DNA of 64,000 bases, taken from the IMG/VR virus record IMGVR_UViG_3300025910_000007, positions 1-64,000 of that record. One strand, given 5' to 3'. A model generated the notes under the pieces. The model saw nothing but the letters and a program-made list of their open reading frames with translations. It was not told the origin of the DNA and did no database searches. This stretch comes from a virus. Positions 18,660-50,369 of the stretch are shown here, in pieces. The translations under genes and the position numbers were made by a program. The number at the start of each line of letters is the position of its first letter. The first letter of the stretch is position 1.

Positions 18660-19064
18660 CTAATAGCCACTTCCTTTGGTATATTTCCCTGCTACTTTCT
18701 CTTCAGTCTTCAAGTAGGTCGCAGTTAGTTCCATCGCAATCCAATCAGCAACACTTTTAGCTTCTTTGACATTGCTGCTGTTCATGACCGATCCTTGTGG
18801 CGGATAGTCCAGCCCTCGCAAAGCGGTAAGTACATGCTGCAAAGGCGTTCCACATTGCAAGGCAACAGAGATGACACGAGCCAAAGCATCGCACGTACCA
18901 CGTAAGAGTGTGCCAGCCTTGGCAATGTCTATGAAAATTTCACCGGGGCTGCCATCGTCGTATTCACCGACCGTCAGGTAAATAGTCTGGCTGCCAATTC
19001 GACAGCATTGACGCCAACTATGCCTGCGTGTCGGCAGGCATTTGCGGATTACGTCTTTGCTCAT
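18660..19064 (-). CDS. Stand-alone TSCPD-domain protein (NrdJ C-terminal-like)
   Basis: The start at 19064 (MSKDVIRKCLP) overlaps the upstream stop. The 134 residues match the TSCPD domain normally found at the C-terminus of B12-dependent ribonucleotide reductase: RKCLPTRR, YLTVGEYDDGSPGEIFIDIAKAG, VISVALQCGTPLQHVL and LDYPPQG. No reductase catalytic domain is in this window. It could modulate host or phage reductase activity. Confidence 0.75.
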   Translation of the reverse strand: MSKDVIRKCLPTRRHSWRQCCRIGSQTIYLTVGEYDDGSPGEIFIDIAKAGTLLRGTCDALARVISVALQCGTPLQHVLTALRGLDYPPQGSVMNSSNVKEAKSVADWIAMELTATYLKTEEKVAGKYTKGSGY

Positions 19065-19639
19065 GTCTTCAATCCCCGTAATACCTTCCGCAGATGTTCC
19101 GGCTTGACACCGGAAAAGAATGTTTCCAGCTGCATTCCAGTCACGCGAAACACCGTCCCGCCGCACTCGGCCTCCAGCACCAATGAGGGCCGCGGGTATT
19201 CGGCGAACGCCCCAACCTTCCGCAGTATTACCATCAACGTTGATGGGAAGAAGACAACGGCCTCGCGTTGATCCCGTCGTGCAATTACTGCCCAGTAGGG
19301 TATTCTGGCGGCTGTCGCGGTCGCGGCGATTTCATTGAACCATTGGCCCCATTCCGGCTGTCGCTGATGTCTCAACCGATCCAGTATGTCATGCGACGTA
19401 GATCGGCTGTAGCCGCGTTTGAGACTGAATACCAGCAGACGTAGCAACGGGGCGCCGCTGATGTCAGTCAGACCAACGTCGCCAAATTGATTGGCCGTTT
19501 GCTTCTGCTTGCGGCTGCGAACGGTAGCACGAGCACCACTACCGCCGGTACGCCAGAAGACAGAATCCGTTTTGCCTTCGGACCACCACCAGCTGAGTTC
19601 GGAGCAGATGGTTCGTTCAAAAACGGAGCCCTTGGCCAT
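19061..19639 (-). CDS. PD-(D/E)XK-like nuclease or resolvase candidate
   Basis: The 192-residue protein begins GSVFERTICSELSWWW and has FWRTGGSGARAT, then NQFGDVGLTD followed by VFSLKRGYS. This order (Glu helix, GDxxxTD, xxK) fits a restriction-endonuclease-like or Holliday-junction-resolvase-like fold. The position expected to be Glu in the ExK motif is Ser (FSLK), so activity is uncertain. It starts directly beside repeat array 1, behind GGAG, so it shares a boundary with the Tas-like locus. Confidence 0.6.
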   Translation of the reverse strand: MAKGSVFERTICSELSWWWSEGKTDSVFWRTGGSGARATVRSRKQKQTANQFGDVGLTDISGAPLLRLLVFSLKRGYSRSTSHDILDRLRHQRQPEWGQWFNEIAATATAARIPYWAVIARRDQREAVVFFPSTLMVILRKVGAFAEYPRPSLVLEAECGGTVFRVTGMQLETFFSGVKPEHLRKVLRGLKT

Positions 19640-19665
19640 GTTTCGTCTCCGTTGACAGGGGGCAA

Positions 19666-20087
19666 ATCATTCAGGGGCTTCGGTTCTATCTGGGCACGCA
19701 GTTCATTCCGAGGCAGCAGTTCCATCTTTCTTTTCGGTTCATTCAGTCAGGGCACTTTTCTGTCTGAGCAAGCAGTTCATTCAGCCGTGGCGATTCTATC
19801 TATGCATCCAGTTCATTCCTCGTTCGCTGTTCTGTCTTTTGCGACAATTCATTCCAAAGCCGCAGCTCTATCTGTGTCTTCAGTTCATTCCTTGTGGACA
19901 GTTCCATCGGTGTCTACAATTCATTCCCGTGTCACGGTTCTATTTTGCACCGCAATTCATTCATTCGCAGCAGTTCTATCCCGGCTCTCGGTTCATTCCG
20001 CGGTCACTGTTCTATCAAAGGAAGCAGTTCATTCGCGTGCGACATTTCTGTCTGACTCCACAGTTCATTCCAACACCTCAGTTATTC
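19666..20087 (-). repeat. TIGR-like dual-repeat array 1
   Basis: Two short half-repeats alternate with an exact 36-bp period over about 11.5 units. On the minus strand they are GAATGAACTG and GATAGAACTG/GACAGAACTG. Adjacent half-repeats are 18 bp apart, leaving variable spacers of about 9 nt. Positions of the plus-strand TTCATTC cores are 19702, 19738, 19776 and then every 36 bp to 20064; TTCTATC-type cores fall midway. One unit is 38 bp. The ends are degenerate, and the right end contains the stop codon of the tas-like gene. This is the layout reported for TIGR arrays, whose guide RNAs are 36 nt with two spacers. Confidence 0.88.
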
Positions 20088-21101
20088 GCTCACTGGCCAG
20101 CACGGCGGCGGGATGTAGTGGACGTGTCCGCCATGTTCCAGCACCCACGGCTTCGGCATCGGCAGCCCCAGAATCTCGCGGCCTATCTGATGGTAGTGGC
20201 TGAGGAAAATCGTCACCGCGTAGCGAGCTGCCCGCCGATCCACTCCAACAGGCTGCAAACGTCCGTCTGCCCACAGCTTCTTCTGGTCAGGGGAAATCGC
20301 CAGCCCCTTGCGTTTGGCCAGTTCCAACCGTCCCAATGCTTGCTCGCGGAACAACCCCGCATCGTTCCGCTGCGTCTCTCGTTGTTTGCGTTCGCTGTAC
20401 AGCCTGACGTAGAGGTAATTGTCATTCTGCAAGCTGCTGGCACGCTTCTGCGCCCGTGCCCGTTTGGCCTTCACCTTCGTCAGCAGTTCAGTACCAGACA
20501 GTTCGATGCCCTTGTCGGCATGTTCCTTCAGCACCTTCTCGGCGATGACATCGTCGTCCCCGTTCAGGGACGTTTCGCTTACGGTCAGCTTCTTGAAGGA
20601 TTCGCCCAACTTGTAACACAGTGTCTTGAGTCGAGCATTCCACGGCCGTTTCTGACCGCGTTCCCACGGCTGAAGTTTGGGGTCCAGCAATCCAGCAAAA
20701 CGCCAGATCGCACCCGCAGTCTGAGCACGGGCAACGTCGATATGGGCCAGCAGCCCCGCGGCGATCACCGCGTCTACCCCGGCGATGCTCATGGCCCAAC
20801 GGCCCAATGGGCGGGCCTGCGCGAATTCCCGCAGCACCCGGGCTGATTCTCTTTCCAGTCGCTCCAGCCGCTGCTTCATCTCCGTAATGAGGACCGGATC
20901 GGCAAGGATATCGGTACTGCGTTCATGTGCCGACTCCTTGTTGCGGGCGCCGACACGCAGTTTCTGGATGCCGTAGTACATGCCTACGGCTGCGGCCATC
21001 TGTTCGCGGTCGAACGTGTGAGCTTCAGCCAGCTGGTCCTTGGTGTACCGCGCCGTTTCCGGCTCCATCAGCAGCGGGGCGGTTCCGTTCGTCGTCTTCA
21101 T
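20082..21101 (-). CDS. Tas-like protein (Nop/IS110-C-terminal-like RNA-guided protein)
   Basis: The 339-residue protein starts behind GGAG. Residues about 100-180 (RWAMSIAGVDAVIAAGLLAHIDV and IWRFAGL) match the helix-hairpin-helix-like segment shared by IS110-family transposase C-termini and Nop-type RNA-binding proteins. The context is decisive: 36-bp dual-repeat arrays abut both ends, as in TIGR-Tas systems, where Tas binds tigRNAs. No RuvC-like DEDD motif or HNH motif is visible, so it resembles the nuclease-less TasA type. The N-terminal 90 residues are helical and the region from 215 to 270 is basic. Confidence 0.82.
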   Translation of the reverse strand: MKTTNGTAPLLMEPETARYTKDQLAEAHTFDREQMAAAVGMYYGIQKLRVGARNKESAHERSTDILADPVLITEMKQRLERLERESARVLREFAQARPLGRWAMSIAGVDAVIAAGLLAHIDVARAQTAGAIWRFAGLLDPKLQPWERGQKRPWNARLKTLCYKLGESFKKLTVSETSLNGDDDVIAEKVLKEHADKGIELSGTELLTKVKAKRARAQKRASSLQNDNYLYVRLYSERKQRETQRNDAGLFREQALGRLELAKRKGLAISPDQKKLWADGRLQPVGVDRRAARYAVTIFLSHYHQIGREILGLPMPKPWVLEHGGHVHYIPPPCWPVSE

Positions 21102-21142
21102 GGGTTTCTCCTGTTTGCAAAAGGGACGTTCACAGATAGCAG

Positions 21143-21380
21143 TTCTGTCAGCAGCAGCTCATTCAATCGTTGCAGTTCTATCTTTCGTCTCAGCTCATTC
21201 AGGGGATACAGTTCTGTCTGTCAGTGCAATTCATTCTGTTCGTGCAGTTCTGTCTGAGGGTCCAGTTCATTCTCTCGGGGCAGTTCTGTCATACTCCGCA
21301 GTTCGTTCCGCCATTTCAGTTCTATCTGTCTGCTTAGCTCATTCTCTCGGAGCGGTTCTATCGGAGGGGTCAGTTACTTC
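21143..21380 (-). repeat. TIGR-like dual-repeat array 2
   Basis: This array has the same alternating half-repeats and 36-bp period as array 1 and lies upstream of the tas-like gene. Plus-strand TTCTGTC/TTCTATC cores are at 21143, 21176, 21212, 21248, 21284, 21320 and 21356. TTCATTC/CTCATTC/TTCGTTC cores are at 21158, 21194, 21230, 21266, 21302 and 21338, with a degenerate one at 21374. The first interval is 15 bp instead of 18. The left end stops about 25 bp before the tas start codon region, and the right end includes the stop codon of the next gene. Confidence 0.87.
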
Positions 21381-21865
21381 ATCGCTTCCTTCATCAGTCC
21401 GGCCAGTTGCGCCTCAGTCCAGGCATCTGCAACCATCTGCCCGTCCTGCATTCCCGCTGCCACTGCTTCGAGGAACGCAGCCTGCCGGGCGTTACCAATC
21501 TCACGTTGGCGGTATCCTACAGCCGATTTCATCACCTGCGTTCGAGTAGCGACGGATAGCCGCGTCCCATCAGGCAACGGCCAGTTGTAGAACTTGCCGC
21601 ATGCCACTACTATCGAATCACGAAACCGGCGACTGTAGGTTCGCGGCGACCCGCAATCACGGGCAATCACGCAGCGGGCTTCCCGCTGGACTTCTCGCAA
21701 GGCTTCTTTGGCGGCCATTTCTACCGCCGCACGTACCGTCATGGCATTGGCCAGAATCACGACCACCATTTCTTCGACGGCCATTGGGGTATAACCGTAC
21801 TGCTCATAAGCAGCCGTAGCGGCGTCCCGAATTGACACAGCAGTATCTGCCTGTCCGCTCTCCAT
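21374..21865 (-). CDS. Helical phage protein, unknown
   Basis: The 163-residue protein starts behind AAGGAG and is largely helical, with a VEEMVVVILANAMTVRAAVEMAAKEAL stretch. Its stop codon lies in the degenerate last unit of array 2. No family is recognised. Its position beside the array does not by itself imply a link to the Tas-like system. Confidence 0.55.
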   Translation of the reverse strand: MESGQADTAVSIRDAATAAYEQYGYTPMAVEEMVVVILANAMTVRAAVEMAAKEALREVQREARCVIARDCGSPRTYSRRFRDSIVVACGKFYNWPLPDGTRLSVATRTQVMKSAVGYRQREIGNARQAAFLEAVAAGMQDGQMVADAWTEAQLAGLMKEAMK

Positions 21866-24425: not shown

Positions 24426-25607
24426 TTAGTCCTCGTCATCTTCCGGGTCTTCGTCATCCCCATCGTCTTCATCTTCCTCCGGCTCTTCGTCGTCCTCGTC
24501 ATCCGATTCATCATCTTCCTTGACGGCCGACGCCTTGCGCTTCGGGGCCGGTGCATCGTCCTTGTCATCATCATCGTCTTCCGGCGTATCTTCCTCTTCT
24601 TGAATGCGGGTGACGTCGCTCGGCTTGATCTTGGCGTAGGCCGTCCCCTCTTCATCTTCCAGCGCCAGCAGCCCCTTGGATGAAACGGCGGTGATCTCGC
24701 ATTCCTTTTTCTTGTACATCACCATCCCGCCGATGACGAAATCCTCCGCCGGTTCAGTAGTATCCTTGTCATCGTCGGCGTCCTTGTGCGCCTTGGTAGG
24801 GGCCGCGTCTTCATCATCCCCATTGTCCGACGCACGAGACCGGCGCGGGGCCTCATCGTCGTCATGATCTTCAGCGTCAACGCTGCCGGCGTTCAGCAAC
24901 ATCGTCAGCTTCTTGGGATCGGGGCGAATCAGCATGGCTTCCAGCGACGACGTCCGCTCCAGCATGTCATCGGGGTATTCGTACTCACGCGGCTGGAAAT
25001 CGATGCGGCCGACCTGCCGGTATTTCTTGTTGGTGATCGCCACCCGCAGCGTCTGGCCCGTTTTCAGGTCGAAGAAGTCCTTGTCCCCGCGCAGAGCGTC
25101 GATGGCTACCTTGAGTTGCTGGCCGAAGCCAAAGCCGCGATTGAAGTAGGCGGCGCTCAGCACCTTGAGCGGGTTCTTCAACTTGCCCGGCTTGTCGTTG
25201 ACCCAGAACAGATTGCGCCGCTGCGGCTGCAACGGATCGGATTCCCCCTTGGGCACCCGCGGCAGTTCGTTACGCATCTTGCAGACAGGGCAGGGGGCGT
25301 CGTACACCTCACGCAGACAGCAGCACTTGTAGCCGAAGCCGCCGTCCGCTTCGGGCACCGAATGCTGTGCGTAGGTCAATTCCCAGTGCTGGAACCCTGC
25401 GTCAGCGCTGGGATTGCGTACCGCATCGCCCACGATGTAGGGCATGATGTCGAACGACAGCACGTCTTCGGTCAGGTCGAACCACTCAACGCCTTCTGGC
25501 AGCTTGACCGCTGTCGGTCCACGAGTCTCGGACTGCTTCTTCGACCACTCGGCCGCGGACGTCTTCCGTGCCTGTTCCTTCGCCTTTTCCCTCTGACTCT
25601 TCGCCAT
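24426..25607 (-). CDS. Single-stranded DNA-binding protein (gp32-like)
   Basis: The 393-residue protein has a basic N-terminus, a central domain with a zinc knuckle (YKCCCLREVYDAPCPVCK, residues about 93-110) and a long Asp/Glu tail over the last 60 residues. This architecture is typical of gp32-type phage SSBs, whose acidic tail recruits partner proteins. It should coat single-stranded DNA during replication and recombination. A second acidic linker is near residue 240. Confidence 0.82.
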   Translation of the reverse strand: MAKSQREKAKEQARKTSAAEWSKKQSETRGPTAVKLPEGVEWFDLTEDVLSFDIMPYIVGDAVRNPSADAGFQHWELTYAQHSVPEADGGFGYKCCCLREVYDAPCPVCKMRNELPRVPKGESDPLQPQRRNLFWVNDKPGKLKNPLKVLSAAYFNRGFGFGQQLKVAIDALRGDKDFFDLKTGQTLRVAITNKKYRQVGRIDFQPREYEYPDDMLERTSSLEAMLIRPDPKKLTMLLNAGSVDAEDHDDDEAPRRSRASDNGDDEDAAPTKAHKDADDDKDTTEPAEDFVIGGMVMYKKKECEITAVSSKGLLALEDEEGTAYAKIKPSDVTRIQEEEDTPEDDDDDKDDAPAPKRKASAVKEDDESDDEDDEEPEEDEDDGDDEDPEDDED

Positions 25608-28984: not shown

Positions 28985-30342
28985 GAATCCCTCTTATTCA
29001 ACCATGCCGGTACTTCCATGATTTGTTGCGCCACACCGTTAGCAGAGTTATCGCGCAATACCTGATTGATGCTGGCGCAAATGCCAGCATACATCTCGCA
29101 GATTTGCCGTTCCTTGCGCAGCATATTGGCCGCTACCTTGCCTTCTGCTTCAGTATGAACCAGCCGCACATTGACACGATTCTTCTGCCCAAATCGCCAG
29201 CACCGCCGCAGTGCCTGATAGTATTGTTCCACGCTATGCGTTGGAAAGTAACTCACGTCTGCGCAATGCTGCCAGTTCAGGCCGAAACTGGCGATCTTGG
29301 GCTTCGTCACCAGCGCCCGTATCTGGCCGCTGGTGAACGCCATTAGTTTCTCTTCCTTTTCCTCATCACGGTCAGCACCGCTAACCTGTACCGCTCCGGG
29401 GATGAATCGTTCTAATAGCGCCGCTTCCTTGTTGAGCTGACACCAGGCAAGAACGGGCCGGTCTCTTGGTAGTAGTTCAGCTACCTTCTGGCAGCGTCGT
29501 TCCGCCGTTCGTTTCTTTTCTTCGCGCTGCTCGGCCAGAGTATTCGCCTGATAAGGGAAAAAACCATTGCGGAAATCATTGGGCAGTACGACTCGTTCCG
29601 CAACCAATTCGGGTAAGATGAATGCACCGTCGGCGTAGCCCAGATCAGAAGGTAGCCGTACCGCTCGTGCCCATCCTGACATCCATTCCCAGAAGCGTGT
29701 ACGGGCATGTCCCTTTAACGCCCAATGCTGCGTATCTTCCCCACCGTTGGTGAAGAACATGCCCAGCATTTGCCCACGAGGCATGATGCCCAATGCTTCA
29801 GACAGCGAACCAATCTCCATGTGATCGTTGGGGGCAGGAGTAGCGGTACAGCCCAAACGATACGGAACCTTCGTCATGAATTCAGTAACAACTCGCCGTG
29901 TTTTGCCGTCGAAATTCTTGATGCAGCTCAGTTCATCACCGACAAAGCCCTGAAAATCAGTAGGGCGGTAATGGTGCAATTGCTCGTAATTGGTGACGTT
30001 GATCCCGCGATGCAATGCTCCGCCCTTGACGCGATGAGCAATCATGCCGAAACGTTCGGCCTCCTGAACGAACTGCCGTCCTACAGCCAAAGGTGTCGCA
30101 ATTAGAATATTGCTGTTGGTATGTCGTACCACGTTTTCAGACCAGACCAATGATAGAAGTGTTTTGCCTAGGCCGCAATCGGCGAGGGCCGCTGCCCAGC
30201 CCTGACGAATTGACCACTCCGCCAGATACTTTTGAAAATCAAAGAGACAGTCCGGTAAGAACGTCGGGGCAAATCCATGCCGACGTCCTTGAACGGATTT
30301 GTGTTTGAGGAAAGCAGCGTATTCCCCGTTGGTATTTTTCAT
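28975..30342 (-). CDS. SF2/SNF2-type helicase paired with the methyltransferase
   Basis: The start at 30342 (MKNTNGEYA) overlaps the polymerase stop (ATGA). The 455 residues have FDFQKYLAEWSIRQG, Walker A LADCGLGKT, motif II VGDELSCIKN, motif III CTATPAPNDH and a C-terminal lobe with FGLNWQHC and QALRRCWRFGQ (motif VI). Such helicase-methylase pairs are frequent in phages; the role is probably DNA remodelling during replication or modification. Confidence 0.8.
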   Translation of the reverse strand: MKNTNGEYAAFLKHKSVQGRRHGFAPTFLPDCLFDFQKYLAEWSIRQGWAAALADCGLGKTLLSLVWSENVVRHTNSNILIATPLAVGRQFVQEAERFGMIAHRVKGGALHRGINVTNYEQLHHYRPTDFQGFVGDELSCIKNFDGKTRRVVTEFMTKVPYRLGCTATPAPNDHMEIGSLSEALGIMPRGQMLGMFFTNGGEDTQHWALKGHARTRFWEWMSGWARAVRLPSDLGYADGAFILPELVAERVVLPNDFRNGFFPYQANTLAEQREEKKRTAERRCQKVAELLPRDRPVLAWCQLNKEAALLERFIPGAVQVSGADRDEEKEEKLMAFTSGQIRALVTKPKIASFGLNWQHCADVSYFPTHSVEQYYQALRRCWRFGQKNRVNVRLVHTEAEGKVAANMLRKERQICEMYAGICASINQVLRDNSANGVAQQIMEVPAWLNKRDSCQ

Positions 30343-31769
30343 CCCTTCGGCCCCCATTCACCGCTCCTATCAACCCACGGATTCTTCTGGAACCAGTTCG
30401 CTTCCCCAATATCCGCCTCAACCTCCATCGGCACTACCAGCCACGGCCATTCTTTTGGCAGCTTGACTGAAACGAAATGGCGAACGGCATTCAGGTAGTC
30501 TTGTAGTTCGCTACGGGGCACGCTGCTGATGATTGAGTCATGGATCTGGCCAACGATCTTTGCCCGCATCTTGTGCTTTTCAATCCACTGTTGCAGCCAG
30601 ACCAGCACTTGCAACAGGCAATGGAATGAGGCTCCTTGGATCACGTAGTTCAGGACTTCGTTCCTCTTATATATCCCTGAACACTTGAAGCCAGTATGCA
30701 TGGCGAACCAACCCTTACGACGGTACGCCTGCCACCATTGTTCCTTCCATAGGGTGTAGACGGGAAAGCGGTTCTGCCACAGTTCGTCTTCTGCTGACTT
30801 TACCTGCGCTTCAAATGTACCGACTGCGGGCGCATGCTTGGGATTGCATGCCCCCAATTTCGTGATACCTTTTGCAGCCAGCCAGCGCCTCATGGGAATC
30901 TTGTTGGGTCCACGCAGATAGCGGGAAGTCCGCCACAATGACGGGGCGCACTGGAAATAGACGCTGCCGTAAAATTGTGCGAAAACGAATGCCCCCTTGC
31001 ACAGATTCCTGAGTGGTCCTGCATCTTCCTTGGCAATCTGGTTCCATTCTTCTCGGGTGATGAGGAAATTGTCCAGGGCGGCGTCTCGGTGCATGTCACT
31101 ATCGGGGTTGACCAGATAGTCTACCAGCGTCGGGTCGTGATGGTAGCACGCGCTTACCCGCACTTCTGCGCCTCGGAAATCGTTCTCGACGATGACCCAA
31201 TCTGGCCCGTCAGGTATGAATGCCGTGCGGATGTACTTGGAGATTTCCTTGTTGCGGATGGGGATGTTGGTGAAGTTGGGCGAACTTGACGAAGACCGAA
31301 ATGTGATGACGGTATTCAGGTTGAATGATGGATGCAGCCGGCCGTTGCAGACTTCTTGCGTGATCCCCTTGAGATAGGTGCCCCGCAGCTTGCACAACTT
31401 CTTCCAGCGAAAGTACGGCTTCAGGAACGGCAGCTTGATGCCAGCGAACGCCGCTTCATTGGTACTGTCCCGCCCTGTCGCCGTTACCGTCTTGCTTTTG
31501 TGTTTCAGTTCCTGAAAGACAACATGGGCCAACTGCGGGCCGCTGTCCAGATTGGCCTTCATGCCAAAGCGACGTCGCCAGATTTTGTAAACATCGTCCG
31601 CACGTAGCTGTCGTTCCAGTTCCTCGATCTGATTGGTAACTTGGACCGTGACCCGTTCCAGATAGGGAATGTCGATACGAATTCCGTTCGCTTCAACTTT
31701 CGCTAGCGCCAGCGCCCCCTCCATGAACAGCTTGAACGCCCGCGGTGAATCGGGAACGACCTTCTGCAT
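30339..31769 (-). CDS. DNA polymerase I-like (family A), polymerase domain only
   Basis: The 476-residue protein has motif A VIVENDFRGAEVRVSA (first Asp retained, DFRGAEVR in place of DYSQIELR), a motif B-like KGAFVFAQFYG, and motif C GQIHDSIISSVP (HDS in place of HDE). It lacks the 3'-5' exonuclease, which is in the separate UDG-exonuclease fusion at 34608. It is the main replicative polymerase candidate. Confidence 0.87.
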   Translation of the reverse strand: MQKVVPDSPRAFKLFMEGALALAKVEANGIRIDIPYLERVTVQVTNQIEELERQLRADDVYKIWRRRFGMKANLDSGPQLAHVVFQELKHKSKTVTATGRDSTNEAAFAGIKLPFLKPYFRWKKLCKLRGTYLKGITQEVCNGRLHPSFNLNTVITFRSSSSSPNFTNIPIRNKEISKYIRTAFIPDGPDWVIVENDFRGAEVRVSACYHHDPTLVDYLVNPDSDMHRDAALDNFLITREEWNQIAKEDAGPLRNLCKGAFVFAQFYGSVYFQCAPSLWRTSRYLRGPNKIPMRRWLAAKGITKLGACNPKHAPAVGTFEAQVKSAEDELWQNRFPVYTLWKEQWWQAYRRKGWFAMHTGFKCSGIYKRNEVLNYVIQGASFHCLLQVLVWLQQWIEKHKMRAKIVGQIHDSIISSVPRSELQDYLNAVRHFVSVKLPKEWPWLVVPMEVEADIGEANWFQKNPWVDRSGEWGPKG

Positions 31770-34217: not shown

Positions 34218-34656
34218 CGTTTTCCCCAAAAGGGTTTTGTGGCGATGGTAGGGCATGAGACGCACATCCAACGTGTCCGCATCTAGGACATTTGCCAACG
34301 CCCTTAACAATTTCGTCCAGCGTCGCGGTCAATTGTCGATCATGGTAACGAGCGGCCCGTGCCTCGAACACGAACAACGCAGCCTTCAGCAAACCGATAC
34401 CCGCTTCGGTTTCCGCACAGGGCAACTGGCTGTTGACATATTCGGCGCGGTCGATCAACGCCCGCAGCACTTCTTGCATCGTCGTGCCAGGGTGATGGCC
34501 AATGTTGCCGGGGTACTTGGTCCCTTCTCGCTTGACGAATGTAAGCGTTTGGAGCAGTTCTCCGTCTAGCGGGTCCAATAGGTATTCATGGCCGCGATCA
34601 ACCACTATCACAGTTTCAACCCCATTTTTGGCGCCAGCTTTTGTGCGATGTGCCAT
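34180..34656 (-). CDS. Conserved phage protein with small C-terminal zinc knuckle
   Basis: The 158-residue protein has QTLTFVKREG...NIGHHPGTTMQEVLRALIDRAEYV, a segment seen in a common phage family, and a C-terminal CPRCGHVGC zinc knuckle. It overlaps the UDG-exonuclease gene by 49 bases and its downstream neighbour by 38. Function unknown. Confidence 0.6.
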   Translation of the reverse strand: MAHRTKAGAKNGVETVIVVDRGHEYLLDPLDGELLQTLTFVKREGTKYPGNIGHHPGTTMQEVLRALIDRAEYVNSQLPCAETEAGIGLLKAALFVFEARAARYHDRQLTATLDEIVKGVGKCPRCGHVGCASHALPSPQNPFGENDERETEVGRLSP

Positions 34657-35846
34657 TCCACCAACGAGTCCATCCCGTTATACAGCAGCAGTTTTTGTAG
34701 CGGGGCCTCGCGGATGCGGTTGGGTGAATTGCCACCCCCTTTGGATGTCAGAAATGGCTTGATTTCATCATCGTAGCTTTCCCCACCTAGTAGCGCGAAC
34801 GTCATGAACTTGGCGCCGGTGATACCCCGCCGGTTGTCCGCTACATGAGACGCCAGCATGTCGTCGATCTTCCAGTTCCGCGGCATCACGCCCAGCTTGG
34901 CCAACGACCACCGAATCTCGAACTGAATATGCTGCCCGATCTTGGGCGAGTCCGACAGGAGCATTTCTTTAGTGGCTTGGATCGCTTCCCCGTGCCAGGG
35001 GTAAGCGACGCTGATCACCCCGTCGCTAACCGAACAGCTGTAGATTTCGGCATGCGCCCCGTCCGGCTTCAAAGTGGTAGTTTCATAGTCGAACGCCAGC
35101 GGCTTCCCCACCGCCGTCATCTTCCGCACCGCTGCTGCTGCCTTGTTCGCGTCCAGCTCCACCCGCACCATCGCCTTGTAGTCAGGCGGGCCGTCCGGCC
35201 ACGGCCGTCCCTTCAGTTTCAGCGCCCATTCCAACTGCTTTTCAAAATCGTTCAGCACCAATGGGTCGGGCTTGTCGTTGAACCGCTGAGCACTGCGTAG
35301 GACGTGGCTAGGATGCCAAACGGGTGCTACCCAGGCGTTTAGTTGCTGGTTGGGGATGCGCCAACCGACCCATTTGGTGACTTCGCCGGGGTCTTCCTTC
35401 CACAGCCAGCCGATGACCGACTTGACCGCGTGTTTGCCCAACAGGATCACCAGCTCGGGCTTCAGTGCTTTGATAGCGTTGACGACGGTAGGACGGCAGT
35501 AGCCGATTTCCTTGTCGGTAGGTTGACGGTTTTTGCCCTTGGCGTCGCTAGCGCGGCAGGCGATGGCGTTCATAATCCAGCAATCGCGGGTCAGTTCGCA
35601 CTTGAACCGACGCAGCGTTTGCTTCAGCAGATCACCAGCGGGTCCGACAAACGGCCGGCCGACAAGGTCTTCGTTTTCACCGGGGCCTTCACCGCAGATG
35701 AGGATTTTGCGGGCGCCGTCTCCATCAATCGGCATGCGAGGGCTTGCGCACTTCTTGTCGAGCTTACACGTCCAGCATTGTGGTTGCGGCGGGACCAGCA
35801 GCTTGAGCGAACGGGTTGTGACGGCGGAAAAGAAACCGGCCATCAT
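34608..35846 (-). CDS. Uracil-DNA glycosylase fused to 3'-5' exonuclease
   Basis: Residues 1-215 are a family 4/5-type UDG: an Fe-S cluster motif CWTCKLDKKC with later cysteines, GEGPGENEDLVGRPFVGPAG (motif 1) and WHPSHVLR (motif 2). Residues 240-412 are a DnaQ/PolI-like exonuclease with LAFDYETTTLKPD (Exo I), GQHIQFEIRW (Exo II-like) and a C-terminal YNGMDSLVEW (Exo III). It supplies the proofreading domain that the polymerase at 30339 lacks, and links it to uracil removal. Confidence 0.83.
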   Translation of the reverse strand: MMAGFFSAVTTRSLKLLVPPQPQCWTCKLDKKCASPRMPIDGDGARKILICGEGPGENEDLVGRPFVGPAGDLLKQTLRRFKCELTRDCWIMNAIACRASDAKGKNRQPTDKEIGYCRPTVVNAIKALKPELVILLGKHAVKSVIGWLWKEDPGEVTKWVGWRIPNQQLNAWVAPVWHPSHVLRSAQRFNDKPDPLVLNDFEKQLEWALKLKGRPWPDGPPDYKAMVRVELDANKAAAAVRKMTAVGKPLAFDYETTTLKPDGAHAEIYSCSVSDGVISVAYPWHGEAIQATKEMLLSDSPKIGQHIQFEIRWSLAKLGVMPRNWKIDDMLASHVADNRRGITGAKFMTFALLGGESYDDEIKPFLTSKGGGNSPNRIREAPLQKLLLYNGMDSLVEWHIAQKLAPKMGLKL

Positions 35847-49322: not shown

Positions 49323-50369
49323 TCAGTCCTCCATGTAAGTCATGCGGACCCGCCCGTTCGGTAGTGTTTCCTCGATGTAGCGCTTGCGTTGCTGAGCGGC
49401 CTGTTCTGGACCCAGCGTTTTATTATCACTGCGGCGTTTGGCTGAAATGATCTGCGGGAACTTGTCAGCGATGCCCTTACCTGAATAGGCTTCGGGCATG
49501 TGCTGTTCACCGAAATGGTCCAGATACCACTGGCAGTAGACGCACACGTCCTTTTCGGGATAGGCCCCATGCAAGACGCGCAGCTGTTTCGCCCATGTTG
49601 TAACAACCGCGGCGGCAGACTTGCGATGCGGTCCATTCACCCCTAGCAATCCAGCGCGGTGAACGAGTTCGTACAGGCGGGCTGCGATATTCCTCTCCAT
49701 TGATTGAACAGGAAGGGAACCGTTGGTTGATGCGGGATTTGCCTGATGGGAAGTGCTAGATTTCCCGCAAGAAGAATTATCGTCCCCCCCTGTCCCAAGA
49801 ACGCCGTTAGGCGTTTGGGACTGTTGTTTTTTGATTGTTTTCTTTTTAGGGGGGTAAATACCCCCCACCCGTCGGGGGTATTTACCCCCCGCGGATTCGT
49901 CGGGGGTATTTACCCCCCGCGGTTTGCGGGGCGGTATTTCAACTTCGCCCAACTTCAGAGCGGCCAGCTGTTTTTCAACCTTGCTCGAACAGATATGCAC
50001 CCACCGCTGTTGTGATTCGCCATGCTTGACGGTCTTGACGAAGCCTTCCTTGCGGAACTTCTTGAAGAACTGCTTTTGCGTATCGCTGTCCCAATCAAGG
50101 GAAGTGCGAAGAAATGAAGTGGTGCAGAGAAAGTACGTCTGATCGTCGAATTGCTTTTTGACGCTGTGCTTGCCCGTGGCATGATTGATGAGGTCTTGAT
50201 AGAAGAGGGCTTCAACCTTGGTGAAGAGGCGGTAGGTGACGAATTCCCGCCGAAAGAAGAAGTAGTTGCCCTGCGATTGGGTGATGAGGTCGTCGCAAGC
50301 GCAAAGCGACACGCTGTCCTGCGAACCCTTTACTTTGGCGGTAGGAACGCTAGAATTGTGGGTAGGCAT
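49323..50369 (-). CDS. Helicase-loader/replication-initiator candidate
   Basis: The 348-residue protein starts behind AAGGAG. Residues 30-135 resemble a winged-helix domain (LINHATGKHSVKKQFDDQTYF...FLRTSL). A proline-rich linker (PPRKPRGVNTP, YPRRVGGIYPP) follows, then a helical C-terminus with CVYCQWYLDHFG. Phage proteins of this layout beside DnaB act as loaders. Short GGGGTATTTACCCC repeats lie in the linker coding region. Confidence 0.55.
   Translation of the reverse strand: MPTHNSSVPTAKVKGSQDSVSLCACDDLITQSQGNYFFFRREFVTYRLFTKVEALFYQDLINHATGKHSVKKQFDDQTYFLCTTSFLRTSLDWDSDTQKQFFKKFRKEGFVKTVKHGESQQRWVHICSSKVEKQLAALKLGEVEIPPRKPRGVNTPDESAGGKYPRRVGGIYPPKKKTIKKQQSQTPNGVLGTGGDDNSSCGKSSTSHQANPASTNGSLPVQSMERNIAARLYELVHRAGLLGVNGPHRKSAAAVVTTWAKQLRVLHGAYPEKDVCVYCQWYLDHFGEQHMPEAYSGKGIADKFPQIISAKRRSDNKTLGPEQAAQQRKRYIEETLPNGRVRMTYMED

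What the first reader, a model, noticed from the sequence alone, without database searches (positions are those of the whole stretch)
19666..21380. Tas-like gene flanked on both sides by 36-bp dual-repeat arrays (TIGR-Tas-like system)
Two arrays with alternating half-repeats GAATGAACTG and GA(T/C)(A/G)GAACTG abut a 339-residue protein carrying the IS110/Nop-type RNA-binding segment. The half-repeats are 18 bp apart and the full period is 36 bp, matching TIGR arrays, whose tigRNAs are 36 nt with two short spacers. This identification follows the TIGR-Tas description reported in 2025. The two-sided layout, with the gene embedded between arrays, is the notable point in a planctomycete-type phage.
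Basis: partly seen in the sequence, partly recalled or inferred. Interest (0 to 1): 0.95.

Follow-up and report, generated by a model that had tools for sequence, protein, structure and literature searches.

The report
Phage TIGR-TasA locus with two arrays
This phage carries a genuine but already described kind of RNA-guided DNA-binding system (TIGR-Tas): one nuclease-free Tas protein gene sits between two arrays of paired short guides, so it is a solid new example rather than a new kind of system.

Summary
On the minus strand, two arrays of alternating 10-bp half-repeats (edge GAATGAACTG, loop GA(T/C)(A/G)GAACTG, 8-bp spacers, 36-bp period) flank a 339-aa gene at 20082-21101. Dinucleotide shuffles give 0 matches against 15 found. 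The arrays hold 6 + 11 complete dual-spacer units.

The protein is a Tas protein. It matches TasR (9mty, E=1e-21) and TasH (21kl, 2e-12) by sequence, and the nine PDB fold matches with E<=0.001 are all TasH or TasR chains. It has no HNH, RuvC or IS110 DEDD domain, so it is TasA-type. Most of 82 viral and phage relatives have similar arrays next to tas. The source paper (PMC12045711) already reports arrays 'upstream and/or downstream' of tas, and 5 of 53 usable relatives are two-sided, so the layout is not new.

Minor local features are a ~51-aa helical insert not seen in the relatives aligned, a 'CTG' box C found in no other array here, and no detectable dedicated promoter or terminator.

Targets remain unknown: spacer pairs do not match their own phage, related phages, or parts of two lysogen genomes above chance. 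In relatives the arrays turn over much faster than their flanks. The planctomycete host was not confirmed.

The parts
20082..21101 (-). tasA-type gene, 339 aa, Nop-like domain protein without nuclease domain
   Evidence: phmmer to TasR 9mty E=1.2e-21 and TasH 21kl E=2.4e-12; profile search 9.3e-32 and 3.4e-18; AlphaFold2 model pLDDT 86.5 with the nine PDB fold matches at E<=0.001 all TasH/TasR chains; no RuvC/HNH/DEDD hit in Pfam up to E=10
21140..21380 (-). upstream TIGR array: first (degenerate) edge repeat overlaps the stop codon of the preceding gene, then 6 complete edge-A-loop-B units and one partial unit ending about 40 bp before the tas start
   Evidence: repeat parse; shuffles give 0 matches
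19663..20070 (-). downstream TIGR array: 11 complete units (ten of 36 bp, one of 38 bp), from shortly after the tas stop codon to about 25 bp before the next gene; last edge degenerate (GAATGATTTG)
   Evidence: repeat parse; shuffles give 0 matches
20424..20576 (-). codons for a ~51-aa insert (about residues 176-226), predicted helical hairpin, absent from the closest relative and from the other relatives shown in the alignment
21374..21865 (-). preceding co-directional gene (163 aa, unknown family); its stop codon lies in the first edge repeat; neighbour, not thought to be part of the system
19061..19639 (-). following co-directional gene, PDDEXK/RusA-like phage endonuclease (192 aa); neighbour, not thought to be part of the system
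   Evidence: phrog_244 E=6.7e-9; PF24608 5e-7

Best explanation
This is a dual-repeat TIGR-Tas locus of the TasA (nuclease-free) type, carried in the replication/recombination gene cluster of a phage genome. Shown by sequence: a Nop-like Tas protein flanked on both sides, on its own strand, by two TIGR arrays encoding 17 complete dual-spacer guides of about 36 nt (8 + 8 nt of spacer), and the linkage of such arrays to this protein in relatives. Inferred from the described homologues TaTasR, SpTasH and FpTasA: the arrays are transcribed as part of the minus-strand operon and cut within the edge repeats, with help from TasA and a host RNase, into 36-nt tigRNAs. A TasA dimer holds one tigRNA, spacers A and B pair with opposite strands of an adjacent 16-18-bp DNA target, and the DNA is bound and bent but not cut. 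Inferred with less confidence: the bound complex blocks transcription or replication of rival mobile DNA (or of the host) during infection, and the many quickly changing guides are a repertoire shaped by an arms race. The stated confidence is for the system type and guide mechanism; for the last step alone I would say about 0.45.
For: Arrays. Protein homology to Tas and only weak similarity to IS110 transposases. No nuclease domain. Relatives: 80 viral loci, most with about 36-nt dual-repeat arrays beside tas, with edge and loop repeats sharing their terminal motifs in most arrays. The closest relative (L002, 50% identical) is also two-sided. The TasH protein of phage CGphi29, characterised in the paper, is a homologue with the same 8-nt spacers. 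Biochemistry of the homologues: PMC12045711. Rapid spacer turnover against conserved flanks in relatives.
Against: No target found: spacer pairs do not match their own phage or related phages above shuffled pairs, nor the parts of two lysogen genomes searched. No dedicated promoter or terminator beyond chance was detected around the arrays, whereas the paper says arrays typically end in a terminator. The box C motif is CTG rather than CCA/CCG. No expression data exist for this phage.
Confidence: 0.88

Rival explanations
1. A TIGR-TasA locus whose tigRNAs act on the phage's own DNA (regulation of its own genes, or packaging/replication timing) rather than on rival or host DNA.
For: No nuclease, so self-binding would not be lethal. 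The locus sits in the replication gene cluster.
Against: The observed spacer pairs match their own genomes no better than shuffled pairs, in both possible geometries and both pairing phases. In relatives spacers change while the flanking genome stays about 98% identical, which is unlike fixed regulatory sites.
Confidence: 0.07
2. A degenerate, no longer functional TIGR-Tas locus: the array repeats have drifted (CTG box C, a 38-bp unit, a partial unit, no terminator) and the protein has an extra insert.
For: Repeat mismatches, missing terminator, unusual insert.
Against: Open reading frame with conserved Nop-region residues; edge and loop repeats keep the same box C in both arrays, which suggests co-evolution with the protein rather than decay; 33 of 35 spacers are exactly 8 nt.
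Confidence: 0.06
3. An IS110-family transposase relic or active IS110 element with unrelated flanking repeats.
For: Weak Pfam Transposase_20 match (E=0.037, below cut-off) and the PHROG name 'transposase'.
Against: No DEDD domain; N-terminus too short for one; nine best fold matches are Tas proteins, IS110 members only at E>=0.17; no element ends; single copy; arrays linked to this protein across many phages.
Confidence: 0.01

Closest known systems
TIGR-TasA (FpTasA of Flavonifractor plautii; PMC12045711)
   Same: Solo Nop-like Tas protein without nuclease, next to dual-repeat arrays.
   Different: Here arrays lie on both sides, there is a ~51-aa insert, and RNA processing is untested. FpTasA was not compared directly by sequence.
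TIGR-TasH of Salicola phage CGphi29 (HQ634153; TasH entries 21kl, 9w04)
   Same: Phage-borne, homologous Tas core, same 36-bp period and 8-nt spacers; TasH is the best fold match.
   Different: TasH has an N-terminal HNH nuclease and one downstream array with repeats AAGCGAGCCA/AAGACAACCA; the window protein has no nuclease.
TIGR-TasR (PDB 9mty)
   Same: Homologous Nop-like region (E=1e-21), fold match.
   Different: TasR carries an active RuvC domain and uses 9-nt spacers.
TasA locus of IMGVR_UViG_3300047160_014435 (L002)
   Same: Closest relative found, 50% identity; array-tas-array layout.
   Different: Repeats GAGCGAGCCG/GAGAGAACCG, at least 74 parsed spacers in two large arrays, no insert in the protein.
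IS110/IS621 bridge-RNA recombinases
   Same: Distant relationship in the Nop-like RNA-binding region (IS621 8wt6, E=6e-4).
   Different: Window protein has no DEDD catalytic domain and no element ends; guides lie in arrays rather than in a single bridge RNA.

Membership tests
TIGR-Tas | Single effector with a Nop-like domain related to known Tas proteins | tested here: met
   Sequence and fold matches to TasR and TasH
TIGR-Tas | Adjacent array of two distinct alternating 8-12-nt repeats | tested here: met
   10-nt edge and loop repeats on both sides of the gene; 0 expected in shuffles
TIGR-Tas | Short spacers of about 8-9 nt giving units of about 36 nt | tested here: met
   33 of 35 spacers are 8 nt; 16-nt total spacer as reported for SpTIGR
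TIGR-Tas | Edge and loop repeats share terminal box motifs that change together | tested here: met
   GA...CTG in both repeats here; CCA/CCA or CCG/CCG in most relatives
TIGR-Tas | Array typically begins and ends in truncated edge repeats and is followed by a rho-independent terminator | tested here: inconclusive
   Terminal repeats are degenerate, but no minus-strand terminator directly after either array. The paper calls this typical, not universal
TIGR-Tas | Arrays processed into 36-nt tigRNAs bound by Tas | not testable with these tools
   Needs small-RNA sequencing
TIGR-Tas | tigRNA-directed binding of opposite strands of a DNA target | not testable with these tools
   Needs biochemistry; target searches gave no match above chance
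TasA subtype | Nop-like domain alone, no HNH or RuvC | tested here: met
   No nuclease family; only about 20 residues precede the coiled-coil helices
IS110 transposase | N-terminal DEDD (RuvC-like) catalytic domain | tested here: not met
   No PF01548 match up to E=10; fold model has no N-terminal domain
IS110 transposase | Mobile-element boundaries or multiple copies | tested here: not met
   No paired ends, single copy

The most novel reading that the evidence does not exclude
A TasA subtype in which the ~51-aa helical hairpin inserted in the Nop-like region, together with a changed box C (CTG), gives the nuclease-free complex a new partner or activity, fed by two arrays embedded in the replication operon and expressed only as part of it.
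Probability: 0.1. Interest if true: 0.5.

Novelty: new member of a known kind. Interest (0 to 1): 0.32.

Why it matters
TasA is the commonest and least understood TIGR effector: its targets and biological role are open. This locus adds a divergent phage example with 17 readable guides, and the relatives gathered here show that arrays can be rewritten while flanking DNA stays about 98% identical. That fits a quickly changing targeting repertoire and makes the question of where spacers come from testable in near-identical phage pairs. The window locus itself does not change what is known about the system.

Tried and rejected
IS110 transposase: rejected. Coding or CRISPR-like repeats: rejected by the dual-repeat structure and the homologous arrays. 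Exact repeat pattern in other viral contigs: no hit, so this repeat version was seen only here. Single-sequence search of viral contigs: no relative; an alignment was needed. Self-targeting by spacer pairs (1404 pairs, 1.6 Mb): not above shuffled pairs; the one deviation, a deficit of 2-mismatch matches in the expected geometry (24 against a mean of 35, 1 of 60 shuffles as low), is weak after 16 comparisons. Cross-phage targets: not above controls. Lysogen chromosomes (0.8 Mb of Acidobacteriaceae KBS 96, 0.4 Mb of Halomonas NO4): no exact match, single-mismatch matches near chance level; only part of each genome was searched. Rfam: nothing. Near-identical phage records by DNA: none. The target geometry (spacer A followed by the reverse complement of spacer B) is my derivation from the reported 8-nt 3' overhangs; the opposite geometry was tested too. 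First script for the target scan failed on a missing key and was rerun.

Full report
What was checked. The two arrays exist at the stated place and are read on the minus strand, like the gene between them. Edge repeat GAATGAACTG and loop repeat GA(T/C)(A/G)GAACTG alternate every 18 bp with 8-bp spacers. The upstream array (21380-21140) has 6 complete edge-to-edge units and a partial one. The downstream array (20070-19663) has 11 complete units, one of them 38 bp long. The edge-N8-loop pattern (2 mismatches allowed) gives 15 matches, all in this locus, against 0 in 100 shuffles. The first edge repeat of the upstream array overlaps the stop codon of the preceding gene.

What the protein is. The 339-aa product of 20082-21101 matches TasR (PDB 9mty, E=1.2e-21) and TasH (PDB 21kl, E=2.4e-12) directly, and at 9.3e-32 and 3.4e-18 with a 34-member profile; IS621 transposase comes far behind at 6e-4. 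An AlphaFold2 model on that alignment (pLDDT 86.5, pTM 0.83) has TasH and TasR chains as its nine PDB matches at E<=0.001, with IS110-family recombinases only at E of 0.17 or worse. No HNH, RuvC or DEDD domain was found, and only about 20 residues precede the coiled-coil helices. By the paper's naming it is a TasA.

Relatives. An alignment search found 80 viral loci, and two further phages were found by tblastn, Salicola phage CGphi29 and Microcystis phage Mvi-JY20. Most have dual-repeat arrays of about 36 bp next to tas; with the window included, 85 arrays and 1682 spacers were parsed in 69 loci. The common repeats are GAGCGAGCCA/GAGAGAACCA and variants, and the last three bases of edge and loop usually agree. 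The window's CTG/CTG occurs in no other parsed array. Of 53 non-redundant relatives with DNA on both sides, 45 have a downstream array, 12 an upstream one and 5 both. The nearest relative, L002, is 50% identical and two-sided; the window protein differs by a ~51-aa insert predicted as a helical hairpin, absent from the other relatives shown in the alignment. Cellular genomes also hold relatives, including Halomonas sp. NO4 and Acidobacteriaceae KBS 96.

Mechanism. [quoted passage not shown] TasA lacks a nuclease and is suggested to block transcription or replication or to aid recombination. For this locus the anatomy is shown; processing, binding and function are inferred. No promoter or terminator beyond chance was found around the arrays, so I infer expression within the minus-strand gene cluster, which includes a UvsX-like recombinase, an SbcC-like exonuclease subunit, a PDDEXK/RusA-like endonuclease and further replication genes.

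Targets. 1404 neighbouring spacer pairs were tested against their own genomes (whole or partial contigs, 1.6 Mb in all) in both geometries, both phases and with gaps of 0-2 bp. Matches equal those of shuffled pairs. Tests against all the other phages gathered are also near control level, and parts of two lysogen chromosomes gave no exact match. The targets of this family remain unknown.

Array turnover. L025 and L048 are 98.2% and 98.7% identical over 6.7 kb and 5.2 kb on the two sides of the locus, yet share only 15 of about 39 spacers; whole A+B units are inserted, lost or replaced inside and at both ends. Pairs with Tas about 92-96% identical (L016/L017, L028/L039, L064/L065) share none. 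This supports a quickly changing repertoire. It concerns relatives, not the window itself.

Verdict. The finding is correct and its interpretation is supported. Since the two-sided layout, the phage setting and nuclease-free Tas proteins are already described, it is a new member of a known kind.

Noticed in passing
L025 6842-7572 and L048 6766-7462 (also L043/L050, L016/L017, L064/L065): TIGR arrays turn over far faster than their surroundings: flanks 98% identical over about 12 kb, but only 15 of about 39 spacers shared, with whole A+B units swapped inside and at both ends.
   Followed up: partly
L054:5947-8079 (+): A Tas protein interrupted by an intein with a LAGLIDADG domain (Intein_splicing E=3e-10); the related L023 Tas, 97% identical outside it, lacks it.
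   Followed up: partly
window 30339-31769 and 34608-35846 (-): Family A DNA polymerase split into two genes: a UDG-superfamily plus 3'-5' exonuclease part, and a polymerase part, with thymidylate synthase and a PRA-PH-like gene between them.
   Followed up: partly
L145 (Halomonas sp. NO4) and L149 (Acidobacteriaceae KBS 96): Tas relatives with dual-repeat arrays in sequenced bacterial genomes not titled as MAGs, possibly prophages, useful for laboratory tests.
   Followed up: partly
window 24426-25607 (-): 393-aa protein with a very acidic, repetitive C-terminus and no Pfam match, near the UvsX-like gene.
   Followed up: no
window 49870-49939: Short tandem repeat, 28-bp unit, 2.5 copies, 88% matches, within the 348-aa ORF at 49323-50369.
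   Followed up: no
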